This document shows positions 55,761 through 59,793 of a stretch of DNA of 64,000 bases, one piece after another. Below the pieces are notes generated by a model that was not told the DNA's origin, ran no database searches, and saw only the letters and a list, made by a program, of their open reading frames with translations. Source of the DNA: a bacterium (GTDB taxonomy: Bacteria > ARS69); assembly GCA_025774805.1 (NCBI GenBank), contig JALGZR010000010.1:1-64000 (forward strand), read 5' to 3'. A program made the position numbers and the translations under genes. Each line of letters starts with the position of its first letter. The first letter of the stretch is position 1.

Positions 55761-56456
55761 ATGAATCTGTGGTCGAGAATCTGGAACTCCTCGATCGGGA
55801 TGAAGATGATCATGGGGCTCACCGGCCTCGCGCTCGTCCTTTTCACGATCGTACACATGCTGGGGAACCTGCAGCTCTTCTTGGGGCCCCATGCACTCAA
55901 TCGATACGCGAGCTTCCTTCAGAACCTCGGGGAGCTGCTCTGGCTGATGAGGGGCGGTTTGCTGATCCTCTTCGTGCTCCACGTGATCTGCGCCATCCGT
56001 GTCACGTACCTGAACCGCGTCGCGCGTCCCGTCCGATACCGCCGGGCGGCCCAAGTCCAGCTCGGCCTGGCTCCCCGCACTTTGATCTACACCGGTGTGC
56101 TCGTGTTCATCTTCCTCGGGTACCACCTGGCCCACTTCACGCTGGGCGCGACGGATCCGTCGTTCAAGGAGCTGCACGACTCACTCGGTCGCCACGATGT
56201 CCATTCGATGGTCGCCAAGGGGTTCGGAGATCCTCGGGCCGCCTGGTCTTACATGATCGCCATGATCCTGCTGGGCTATCACCTGAGCCACGGCATTCCG
56301 AATCTCTTCCAATCGGTCGGCTGGAATCATCCGAAGTACCAGCCCGTCCTGAAGCGATGGGGCGCGATTCTCGCGATTCTGATCGTGATCGGGAACATCT
56401 CGATGCCGTTGGCCGTCCAGCTCGGACTGGTCCGGGTCGTCGCGGGAGGTCACTAG
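55761..56456 (+). CDS. sdhC: Succinate dehydrogenase cytochrome b subunit
   Basis: 231 aa membrane anchor, five predicted helices, of the B558-like type found in Bacteroidetes and Bacillus SdhC/FrdC. ATG 55761 has GGGAGA close upstream; an in-frame start at 55671 would add a hydrophilic leader. Haem-ligand histidine candidates lie in [36 protein letters not shown] and [14 protein letters not shown]. Ends one base before sdhA; the C-A-B order supports a menaquinone-linked complex. Confidence 0.93.
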
Positions 56457-56457
56457 C

Positions 56458-58374
56458 ATGAAGCTCGATGCGAAGATCCCGTCCGGGGCCATTGCCGAGA
56501 AGTGGGATCGGCACCGCTTCGAGATGAATTTGGTCAACCCGGCGAACAAGCGGAAGTTCGAAGTGATCGTGGTGGGCTCGGGGCTGGCCGGGGGGTCGGC
56601 CGCCGCGACCCTCGCCGAGCTCGGATACCGCGTGAAGTGCTTCTGTTACCAGGACAGCCCGCGGCGGGCCCACAGCATCGCCGCCCAGGGCGGAATCAAC
56701 GCCGCGAAGAACTACCAGAACGACGGCGACAGCGTCTATCGCCTCTTCTACGACACGGTGAAGGGAGGCGACTTCCGCTCTCGCGAGGCGAACGTCTACC
56801 GGCTCGCCCAGGTGAGCACGAACATCATCGACCAGTGCGTTGCGCAGGGAGTTCCCTTCGCCCGCGAGTACGGCGGACACCTCGCGAACCGCTCCTTCGG
56901 GGGCGCTCAGGTGTCCCGTACGTTCTACGCCCGGGGACAGACGGGGCAGCAGCTCCTCCTCGGAGCCTACTCGGCGCTGAGCCGGCAGATCGGGGCGGGC
57001 GCGGTGGAGATGCACTCCCGCAGCGAGATGCTCGACCTCGTCGTAATCGACGGGCGCGCGCGGGGCATCGTCACGCGCGATCTGATCACCGGCAAGATCG
57101 AGACTCACGTCGCAGACGCGATCGTATTGGGGACGGGTGGATACGGTCCGGTGTTCTTCCTCTCGACGAACGCCAAGGGCTGCAACGTCACCGCAACGTG
57201 GCGCGCGCACAAACGGGGCGCGGGTTTCGCGAATCCCTGCTTCACCCAGATCCACCCCACCTGCATTCCCGTCTCGGGCGAGCACCAGTCCAAGCTCACC
57301 CTGATGTCCGAGTCGCTCCGCAACGACGGGCGCATCTGGGTGTCGAGGAAGCCTGGAGACACTCGTCGCCCGGGAGACATCCCCGAGGGCGAGCGCGACT
57401 ACTTCCTCGAGCGCAAGTATCCGAGCTTCGGCAACCTCGCCCCGCGCGACATCTCCTCGCGCTCCGCGAAGGAGGTCTGCGACGAGGGCCGAGGGGTGGG
57501 CGAAACCGGTCGCGGGGTCTACCTCGATTTCGCCGACGCGATCGAGCGCCTCGGGCGCAGGGTGATCAGCGAGCGCTACGGCAACCTGTTCGACATGTAC
57601 GAGAAGATCACGGGGGAGAATCCCTACGAGGTGCCGATGCGCATCTACCCCGCCTCCCACTACACGATGGGAGGGCTCTGGGTGGACTACAACCTGATGA
57701 GCACCGTGCCCGGTCTCTTCGTGATCGGCGAGGCGAACTTCTCCGACCACGGCGCCAACCGGCTCGGGGCGAGCGCGCTCATGCAGGGGCTCGCGGACGG
57801 CTACTTCGTCCTCCCCTACACGATCGGCAACTATTTCGCCTCGGAGGGAAAGCCCCCGGAGGTGGCGCCCGATCATCCCGAGGCCCGGAAGGTCGTCGAG
57901 GAGGTCCGCAACCGCATCGATCGGCTCCTCGGCGCGAACGGAAGACGCACACCCGATACGTTCCACCGGGAGCTCGGCGAGCTCGTCTGGGAGGATTGCG
58001 GCATGTCCCGCAACGAGGCGGGTCTGAAGAGGGCTCTCGAGCGGATTCCCGAGCTGCGGGCCGAGTACTGGGAAGACGTCAACGTCCTCGGAACGGCGGA
58101 GTCGCTCAACGTCTGCGTCGAGAAGGCGACGCGGGTCGCCGACTTCCTCGAGTTCGCCGAGACGATGTGCCGCGACGCTCTCGAGCGTGACGAATCGTGC
58201 GGAGCCCACTTTCGGGAGGAGCACCAGACCTCCGAGGGCGAGGCGAAGCGGAACGACACCGAGTACGCTCACGTGAGCGTCTGGGAGTACCGGGGAGAGG
58301 ACGAGGCGCCGGTCATGCACAAGGAGCCTCTCACGTTCGAAGAAGTCCGGCTCGCGACGAGGAGTTACAAGTGA
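56458..58374 (+). CDS. sdhA: Succinate dehydrogenase/fumarate reductase flavoprotein subunit
   Basis: 638 aa. FAD-binding [20 protein letters not shown] near residue 36; the covalent-FAD His is in [20 protein letters not shown]. Active-site parts are [10 protein letters not shown], the [10 protein letters not shown] histidine in [10 protein letters not shown], and [20 protein letters not shown]. Full length for the family. Its stop overlaps the sdhB start (TGATG). Confidence 0.96.
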
Positions 58375-59123
58375 TGAACCTGACCCTGAAGGTGTGGCGC
58401 CAGAAGGATGCCCGGGACAAGGGGAGCATCGTCACTTACGAGGTGAAGAAGATCAGCCCGGACTCCTCGTTTCTCGAGATGCTGGACCAGCTCAACGAGG
58501 ACCTCCAGAACCGCGGGGAGGAGCCGATCGCCTTCGACCACGACTGCCGCGAGGGGATCTGCGGCATGTGCTCCCTCGTGATCAACGGAATTCCCCACGG
58601 ACCGGAGCGGGCGACGACGGTCTGTCAGCTTCACATGCGTCACTTCCGCGACGGAGACACCATCTTCATCGAGCCGTGGCGGGCCCGCGCGTTTCCCGTG
58701 ATCCGGGATCTGGTGGTCGACCGGACCGCATTCGACCGGATCTTCCAGGCGGGGGGATACGTCTCCGTGAACACGGGCGGTGCCCCCGACGCCAACGCGG
58801 TGCCGATCGCCAAGGCCGATGCCGACCTGGCCATGGACGCGGCCTCCTGCATCGGGTGCGGGGCCTGCGTCGCCTCCTGCCGGAACGCGTCCGCGATGCT
58901 CTTCGTGGGGGCCAAGATCTCCCAGTTGCGCCACCTGCCCCAGGGGCAGCCCGAGAGAAAGCGGCGGGCCCTCGCCATGGTGGCGCAGATGGACCGTGAG
59001 GGCTTCGGCAACTGCTCGAACCACTACGAGTGCGAAGCGGTGTGTCCCAAGGAGATCAAGCGCGACGTCATCAACGAGCTGAACCAGGACTATCTCGTGG
59101 CGAGTCTCACGGGGAGGGAGTGA
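58374..59123 (+). CDS. sdhB: Succinate dehydrogenase/fumarate reductase iron-sulfur subunit
   Basis: 249 aa. The [2Fe-2S] motif is [20 protein letters not shown] with the later Cys in TTVCQLHM; the [4Fe-4S] and [3Fe-4S] ligands are in [11 protein letters not shown] and [19 protein letters not shown] 58374 is coupled to sdhA; its TGA overlaps the ATG of the next gene, the ArsC/YffB-like selenoprotein candidate. Confidence 0.96.
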
Positions 59124-59464
59124 TGGCCCGGATCCGGATGTACGGAAAGGGCACCTGAGGCACGGTCCGCAAGGCAAGAGGTCTCTTGCGCGAACTGGGG
59201 ATCGAGTACGATTTCCGCGACACCGCGAAGGAGCCGCTGAGCGCGGCGGAGCTGAAGAGGCTCGTCGGGAAGCGCCCGATCGAGGACTTCCTGAACCCGC
59301 GCAGCACCTCCTACCGCAAGATGGGACTGAAGAACCGGAAGATCTCCCGCACCGAGGCGATCCGGCTGATGGTCGAGGACGGCAATTTCATTCGACGGCC
59401 GATCCTGATCTCCGGGTCGCGCGCCGTCTTCGGGTTCGACGACACGGTCTACCGAGAGCTCTAG
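59123..59464 (+). CDS. Probable selenoprotein: ArsC/YffB (Spx-like) family with in-frame UGA at the redox Cys
   Basis: Reading from ATG 59123 (GGGGAGGGAG just upstream, overlapping the sdhB stop) gives [11 protein letters not shown], then TGA at 59156-59158, then GTVRKARGLLRELGIEYDF and an intact ArsC/YffB-like remainder to the stop at 59462-59464, 113 residues in all. Family members have the form Y-G-x-x-x-C-G/D-T-x-x-K-A; the UGA is exactly at that Cys, so Sec12 is proposed. FLNPRSTSYRKMG and FIRRPILISGSRAVFGFDD match conserved family parts. A hairpin at SECIS position follows (59174-59189). A conventional call from TTG 59186 would lose the active site. Alternative: a nonsense mutation. Confidence 0.82.
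59174..59189 (+). promoter_or_regulatory. Bacterial SECIS-like hairpin
   Basis: GCAAG (59174-59178), loop AGGTCT (59179-59184), CTTGC (59185-59189). It begins 15 bases after the UGA and its loop 20 bases after it, within the known bacterial SECIS window, and has G at the second and third loop positions. The loop hexamer equals, to my recollection, that of E. coli fdhF. An alternative 6-bp stem CGCAAG/CTTGCG (59168-59173 with 59185-59190) would expose the same GGTC. Confidence 0.7.
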
Positions 59465-59489: not shown

Positions 59490-59515
59490 GGGATTCTCCC
59501 TTGTGCGAGAATCCC
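59490..59515 (+). terminator. Hairpin after the selenoprotein candidate
   Basis: GGGATTCTC (59490-59498) and GAGAATCCC (59507-59515) form a perfect 9-bp stem with an 8-base loop. There is no downstream T-run, so it may act as a pause, processing site or Rho-assisted end before the CDGSH gene. Confidence 0.4.
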
Positions 59516-59559: not shown

Positions 59560-59793
59560 GTGCCCTACGGGAAGGGACCGTGGGTCGGTCCGGTCGAAGA
59601 GGGAACCAAGGCGTTCTGCGCCTGCGGCGAATCGAGCGACAAGCCGTACTGCGACGGCAGTCACCATCGCCTTGGCACGGGGAAGACGCCGTGCGTCTAC
59701 GAGATCACCGAGAAGAAGAACTATGCCATCTGCCAATGCGGCACGAGCCGGACACCCCCCCTGTGCGACGGCTCCCATAAGACGCTGAGCTGA
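59560..59793 (+). CDS. Double CDGSH iron-sulfur protein
   Basis: 77 aa with two complete CDGSH motifs: Cys20, Cys22, Cys31, His35 (CACGESSDKPYCDGSH) and Cys58, Cys60, Cys69, His73 (CQCGTSRTPPLCDGSH). Each binds a labile [2Fe-2S] cluster with 3Cys-1His ligation, as in mitoNEET/Miner2-type proteins. No membrane anchor is present, so it is cytosolic. GTG 59560 has AGGAGG five bases upstream. Follows sdhCAB and the ArsC-like gene; an electron- or cluster-transfer role is plausible. Confidence 0.93.
   Translation: MPYGKGPWVGPVEEGTKAFCACGESSDKPYCDGSHHRLGTGKTPCVYEITEKKNYAICQCGTSRTPPLCDGSHKTLS

What the first reader, a model, noticed from the sequence alone, without database searches (positions are those of the whole stretch)
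59123..59464. Candidate selenoprotein of the ArsC/YffB (Spx-like) family encoded directly after sdhB
Seen: one continuous frame from ATG 59123 to the stop at 59462 is interrupted only by a TGA at 59156-59158, and both sides match one ArsC/YffB-like protein. The TGA falls on the catalytic Cys (YGKGT-U-GTVRKA). Known: UGA with a downstream SECIS encodes selenocysteine, and Sec commonly replaces redox Cys; ArsC-like selenoproteins have been predicted in metagenomic surveys. Inference: Sec12 is the active residue. A normal gene caller would report a TTG-started, active-site-less fragment or miss the gene.
Basis: partly seen in the sequence, partly recalled or inferred. Interest (0 to 1): 0.9.

Follow-up and report, generated by a model that had tools for sequence, protein, structure and literature searches.

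The report
Selenocysteine ArsC/YffB-like protein behind sdhB
An uncultivated bacterium encodes a small ArsC/YffB-like redox protein whose active-site residue is almost certainly selenocysteine, read from an internal UGA that gene callers take for a stop; such selenoproteins were already known, and this is a new, cysteine-free member in the succinate dehydrogenase operon.

Summary
Window 59123-59464 is one 113-codon ArsC/Spx/YffB-like frame with a single UGA at codon 12, the catalytic position. Evidence: (1) the same UGA sits at the same codon in a 63%-identical homologue, also directly after sdhB, in a genome of the same family (deposited as Gemmatimonadetes bacterium HKST-UBA01), and in five genomes of one family in another phylum plus three more distant ones; Cys stands there in open-frame ArsC/YffB homologues. 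(2) The source genome has selA, selB and tRNA-Sec(UCA). selD is missing from this 284-contig MAG, but all four family mates have it, itself with an in-frame UGA. (3) 21 nt after the UGA is a hairpin, GCAAGA-GGUC-UCUUGC, written in rare codons (synonymous-codon test p=1.5e-4), conserved across phyla, with the AGGUCU apical sequence of E. coli fdhF. (4) dN/dS is about 0.3 downstream of the UGA. ArsC-type selenoproteins (UxxS, UxxC) have been known since 2005-2008; this one is UxxV, has no Cys, lacks two of three arsenate-binding arginines, and scores below the curated ArsC selenoprotein model. Most likely a YffB-like mono-selenol thiol reductase; substrate unknown. A new member of a known kind.

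The parts
59123..59464 (+). Sec-containing ArsC/YffB-like protein, 113 aa plus TAG stop; ATG overlaps the sdhB stop codon by one base
   Evidence: homologue with the same UGA also after sdhB in G001
59156..59158 (+). UGA codon for Sec12, at the catalytic Cys position of the ArsC/YffB family (motif YGKGT-U-GTV)
   Evidence: aligned UGA or Cys in homologues
59174..59189 (+). Candidate bacterial SECIS apical hairpin GCAAGA-GGUC-UCUUGC, loop beginning 21 nt after the UGA
   Evidence: same AGGUCU as E. coli fdhF
58374..59123 (+). sdhB, iron-sulfur subunit of succinate dehydrogenase/fumarate reductase, directly upstream
56458..58374 (+). sdhA, flavoprotein subunit
55782..56456 (+). Sdh cytochrome b-type membrane subunit, first gene of the presumed operon

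Best explanation
The gene encodes a selenoprotein. Ribosomes that finish sdhB restart at the overlapping ATG (inferred); at codon 12 SelB, bound to the hairpin at 59174-59189, delivers Sec-tRNA(Sec) to the UGA (inferred from machinery, hairpin and conservation). The product has the ArsC/Spx/YffB fold with Sec12 as the only redox-active chalcogen, since the protein has no Cys. It most likely works as a YffB-like mono-selenol thiol reductase: Sec12 attacks a disulfide or similar oxidised substrate, and an external thiol (glutathione, another low-molecular-weight thiol, or glutaredoxin/thioredoxin) resolves the intermediate, with Arg92 as the conserved active-site arginine. The link to succinate dehydrogenase suggests a role in redox maintenance near this respiratory complex. 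Shown by sequence: frame, conserved UGA, SECIS-like hairpin, Sec machinery, purifying selection, fold family. Inferred: incorporation of Sec, reductase activity, reductant, link to Sdh. I put Sec at about 0.95 and the YffB-like reductase role at about 0.5.
For: Single UGA at the active-site codon within one ArsC-family frame. UGA at the same codon in G001 (63% identical, after sdhB), in five genomes of family f155 in another phylum, and in G035, G003 and G086; Cys in open-frame ArsC/YffB homologues. dN 0.29 against dS 0.93 after the UGA between window and G001; dN 0.016, dS 0.19 between G320 and G321. selA, selB and tRNA-Sec(TCA) in the genome; Sec-SelD in all four family mates. Hairpin: synonymous-codon test p=1.5e-4; run GCA AGA GGT CTC TTG rarer than any of 2470 five-codon runs in neighbouring genes; same stem in five genomes of two phyla; AGGUCU as in E. 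coli fdhF. Model with pLDDT 92.5 matches YffB 1rw1 (TM 0.87) and Spx 3gfk (0.84). Two of the three ArsC arginines are replaced, as reported for YffB (PMC3169414).
Against: selD was not found in this MAG with the family model or a relative's SelD. The MAG is 96.33% complete with 5.06% contamination, and the sel genes lie on other contigs than the window. Overall folding energy of the UGA region is unremarkable (z -0.13 to -0.60), and an energy-only synonymous test on the window gene gave p=0.44; the significant test used a loop rule (GU at positions 2-3) set after seeing the hairpins, though E. coli fdhF supports it independently. No biochemical data; nothing found identifies substrate or reductant.
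Confidence: 0.85

Rival explanations
1. The protein is a Sec-containing arsenate reductase that reduces As(V) with glutathione/glutaredoxin.
For: Pfam family is ArsC; TIGR00014 matches at 46.7 bits; UxxS selenoproteins are named arsenate reductase in surveys.
Against: Below the TIGR00014 cutoff (46.7 against 106.05). Of the three arginines of E. coli ArsC only the Arg94 equivalent (Arg92) is kept; the positions of Arg60 and Arg107 carry Asn and Phe (triad from PMC3169414). No ars genes among the neighbours checked.
Confidence: 0.08
2. It is a Sec variant of the Spx/MgsR RNA-polymerase-binding regulators, with Sec12 as the redox sensor.
For: TIGR01617 is passed narrowly (79.5 against 75.05 bits); Foldseek's best hits include Spx bound to the RNA polymerase alpha CTD.
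Against: The CxxC switch of Spx is absent: U-G-T-V, no other Cys. The G001 orthologue is below the TIGR01617 cutoff (67.8). Spx-specific models score far below cutoff (46.6 against 123 and 35.6 against 159). YffB 1rw1 fits at least as well (TM 0.87).
Confidence: 0.15
3. The UGA is a real stop, a sequencing error or a pseudogene mutation; only the downstream TTG-started fragment, or nothing, is made.
For: selD is missing from the assembly; a 92-aa ORF starting with TTG exists downstream.
Against: Same UGA in separately assembled genomes of two phyla; purifying selection downstream; the fragment would lack strand 1 and the catalytic residue; rare-codon hairpin conserved.
Confidence: 0.03
4. UGA is read as another residue (Trp, Cys or Gly) through a general change of code or a suppressor rather than as Sec.
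For: A UGA inside a frame alone would not tell Sec from other recodings.
Against: Only one read-through UGA candidate in 64 kb; sdhB ends in TGA; tRNA-Sec(UCA), SelA and SelB are present; homologues have Cys at the site.
Confidence: 0.01

Closest known systems
ArsC-family selenoproteins of marine metagenomes: 'Arsenate reductase (ArsC) 1' UxxS and 'Arsenate reductase 2' cd03032 UxxC (PMC1088965, PMC2398784)
   Same: COG1393/PF03960 fold family; Sec at the catalytic Cys position; bacterial SECIS downstream of the UGA; Cys homologues exist.
   Different: Motif here is UxxV and there is no Cys in the protein; start codon overlaps the sdhB stop; found in MAGs of a phylum represented by 5 held genomes.
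NCBIfam NF041106 ArsC_rel_Se_1, 'ArsC family (seleno)protein' (listed as UxxC in PMC13188914)
   Same: Same superfamily, Sec in place of Cys, similar length.
   Different: Window protein scores 28.4 and the UxxC relatives G161 and G035 37.3 and 25.4 bits against a cutoff of 85; the G001 protein is not listed at E<=0.001.
YffB (1rw1 Pseudomonas aeruginosa; 2kok Brucella melitensis, PMC3169414)
   Same: Best or near-best sequence and fold match; single catalytic chalcogen without CxxC; one of the three ArsC arginines kept; GF motif near the C-terminus.
   Different: Cys in YffB, Sec here; about 31% identity.
Spx / MgsR (TIGR01617)
   Same: Fold and overall profile; narrow pass of the TIGR01617 cutoff.
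   Different: No CxxC switch; far below Spx-specific models.

Membership tests
Bacterial selenoprotein (Sec by UGA recoding) | In-frame UGA aligned with Cys/Sec of homologues | tested here: met
Bacterial selenoprotein (Sec by UGA recoding) | SECIS hairpin just 3' of the UGA with G (GU) in the apical loop | tested here: met
   loop rule set post hoc, energy alone not significant
Bacterial selenoprotein (Sec by UGA recoding) | selA, selB and tRNA-Sec in the genome | tested here: met
Bacterial selenoprotein (Sec by UGA recoding) | selD in the genome | tested here: inconclusive
   Absent from this MAG, present in all four family mates
Bacterial selenoprotein (Sec by UGA recoding) | Selenium in the protein | not testable with these tools
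   needs mass spectrometry or 75Se labelling
ArsC/YffB/Spx superfamily (PF03960) | Sequence profile and fold | tested here: met
Arsenate reductase ArsC (TIGR00014) | Curated score cutoff 106.05 bits | tested here: not met
   46.7 bits
Arsenate reductase ArsC (TIGR00014) | Arginine triad equivalent to Arg60, Arg94, Arg107 | tested here: not met
   only the Arg94 equivalent, Arg92 (PMC3169414)
ArsC_rel_Se_1 (NF041106) | Curated score cutoff 85 bits | tested here: not met
   28.4 bits
Spx/MgsR regulator (TIGR01617) | Curated score cutoff 75.05 bits | tested here: inconclusive
   window 79.5, G001 orthologue 67.8
Spx/MgsR regulator (TIGR01617) | CxxC redox switch | tested here: not met
   U-G-T-V, no Cys
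YffB | Single catalytic chalcogen, one Arg of the triad, GF motif near the C-terminus, fold | tested here: met
YffB | Glutathione binding / thiol reductase activity | not testable with these tools
   bench assay needed

The most novel reading that the evidence does not exclude
A distinct, cysteine-free UxxV selenoprotein subfamily dedicated to succinate dehydrogenase: a mono-selenol reductase that is translationally coupled to sdhB and services or regulates the Sdh iron-sulfur subunit.
Probability: 0.2. Interest if true: 0.6.

Novelty: new member of a known kind. Interest (0 to 1): 0.42.

Why it matters
Standard annotation loses this gene or reports an active-site-less fragment. It widens the ArsC/YffB selenoproteins beyond the curated model (UxxV and no Cys), shows Sec in a lineage represented by few genomes, and offers a clean test case: with a single chalcogen in the protein, any redox activity must come from Sec12. 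The operon link with sdhB gives a concrete lead on physiology for a family whose substrate is unknown.

Tried and rejected
Rfam gathering scan of the window: no hits. First genome-contig scan with the single protein found no relatives; its patterns included the C-for-U stretch. Energy-based SECIS tests were not significant for the window gene: in a high-GC gene most synonymous versions also fold, so codon choice and loop were tested instead. Covariation is nearly absent, one compensatory pair in seven, because the stem hardly varies. Sdh linkage was not seen in the UxxC clade: three of its loci (L055, L056, L058) are followed by a membrane protein that looks like an EamA-type transporter (my reading, not profile-checked). 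My first regex for SelD found nothing and was replaced. Considered and rejected: assembly error, pseudogene, general UGA reassignment (see rivals).

Full report
What is there. Window 59123-59464 (+) is a 113-codon frame from ATG to TAG with a single internal stop, UGA at 59156-59158, codon 12. With the UGA read through, the protein is [22 protein letters not shown]... and matches Pfam ArsC (4.4e-17) over residues 7-112, across the UGA. The ATG overlaps the sdhB stop by one base; Pfam confirms SdhA, SdhB and a cytochrome subunit upstream. Table 11 gives only a TTG-started 92-aa fragment. In a codon-usage scan of every in-frame TGA on both strands this was the only read-through candidate in the window.

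Is the UGA translated? The same UGA lies at the same codon in G001, a genome of the same family (63% identity), again directly after sdhB. That contig is JAGQIB010000393.1, deposited as 'Gemmatimonadetes bacterium isolate HKST-UBA01'. In another phylum all five family-f155 genomes that match (G161, G318-G321) carry UGA there (YGKFT-U-TSC), while related families f174 and f177 have open frames (in these the alignment at the active site is less certain). More distant UGA members are in G035, G003 and G086. Open-frame YffB/ArsC homologues have Cys at the site, including the close matches G476 (YGVPT-C-QKI) and G327. Between window and G001, dN is 0.29 and dS 0.93 downstream of the UGA; for G320/G321 0.016 and 0.19. 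A stop followed by decay does not look like this.

Machinery. The genome (5.1 Mb MAG, 284 contigs, 96.33% complete, 5.06% contaminated) has selB (383 bits), selA (536 bits) and tRNA-Sec with anticodon TCA. selD was not found with the family model or with the SelD of G001. All four family mates have selD, with an in-frame UGA of its own (in G001 read as SHCAG-U-ASK). The simplest reading is a gap in the MAG, but it is a real hole in the evidence. SelB is present in all four mates too.

SECIS. 21 nt after the UGA begins the loop of GCAAGA-GGUC-UCUUGC (59174-59189). Its codons GCA AGA GGT CTC TTG are unusual here (AGA 2.2% of Arg, TTG 4.8% of Leu, GCA 3.9% of Ala, GGT 9.4% of Gly); none of 2470 five-codon runs in seven neighbouring genes is as rare, and synonymous recoding gives as long a stem on a GU-type loop in 1.5e-4 of trials. 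The same test gives 2.0e-4 for G001 and 8e-4 to 4.6e-3 for G319, G318 and G321, but is not significant for G035 (0.39); twelve Cys homologues show no such hairpin. The stem is nearly identical in five genomes of two phyla, with loop GGUC or AGUU. The AGGUCU apical sequence is that of E. coli fdhF (sequence verified). Caveats: the loop rule was set after seeing the hairpins, minimum energies alone are not significant, and the protein sequence explains part of the nucleotide conservation.

What does it do? A model (mean pLDDT 92.5) matches YffB 1rw1 (TM 0.87) and Spx 3gfk (0.84); the best PDB sequence hit is YffB 2kok. The protein has no Cys, so Sec12 is its only redox chalcogen. Of the ArsC arginine triad only the Arg94 equivalent, Arg92, remains; the other two positions are Asn and Phe, the condition described for YffB, which binds glutathione and is proposed to be a GSH-dependent thiol reductase (PMC3169414). 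Arsenate reductase is therefore unlikely, and Spx lacks support because the CxxC switch is gone. I favour a YffB-like mono-selenol reductase (about 0.5), with Spx-like regulator (0.15) and arsenate reductase (0.08) behind it, the rest unknown.

Is it new? ArsC selenoproteins were reported from the Sargasso Sea (14 sequences) and the Global Ocean Sampling (UxxS, 77; UxxC of cd03032, 42), and are in reviews and in NCBIfam NF041106. The window protein is 28.4 bits against the NF041106 cutoff of 85. In a tree of 47 homologues the Sec label needs 3 changes, at least 2 forced by well-supported branches, so Sec/Cys exchange occurred more than once in this superfamily; the window and G001 form one supported pair. 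The UxxV motif is not among the ArsC motifs in the passages of the papers read, but not all earlier sequences were available, so I call it a new member of a known kind.

Noticed in passing
window 59560-59793 (+): A double CDGSH iron-sulfur protein (PF09360, two stretches) follows the selenoprotein gene; in G001 a different gene follows, so only the sdhB-arsC(Sec) pair is conserved there.
   Followed up: partly
window 59490-59515: Perfect 9-bp inverted repeat GGGATTCTC/GAGAATCCC with 8-nt spacer between the selenoprotein gene and the CDGSH gene, without a T-run; possible attenuator or processing site.
   Followed up: no
G003, locus L031:1480-1815 (+): A same-family genome has a second kind of Sec-ArsC (TRT-U-GTC), closer to true ArsC (96.4 bits on TIGR00014), next to what looks like an aconitase gene on the opposite strand.
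   Followed up: partly
loci L055, L056, L058: The UxxC clade of family f155 is followed by a membrane protein resembling an EamA-type transporter in three genomes, a different conserved neighbourhood.
   Followed up: no
G000 as a whole: selA, selB and selC are present but selD is not found in the assembly, while all four family mates have SelD with an in-frame UGA.
   Followed up: partly
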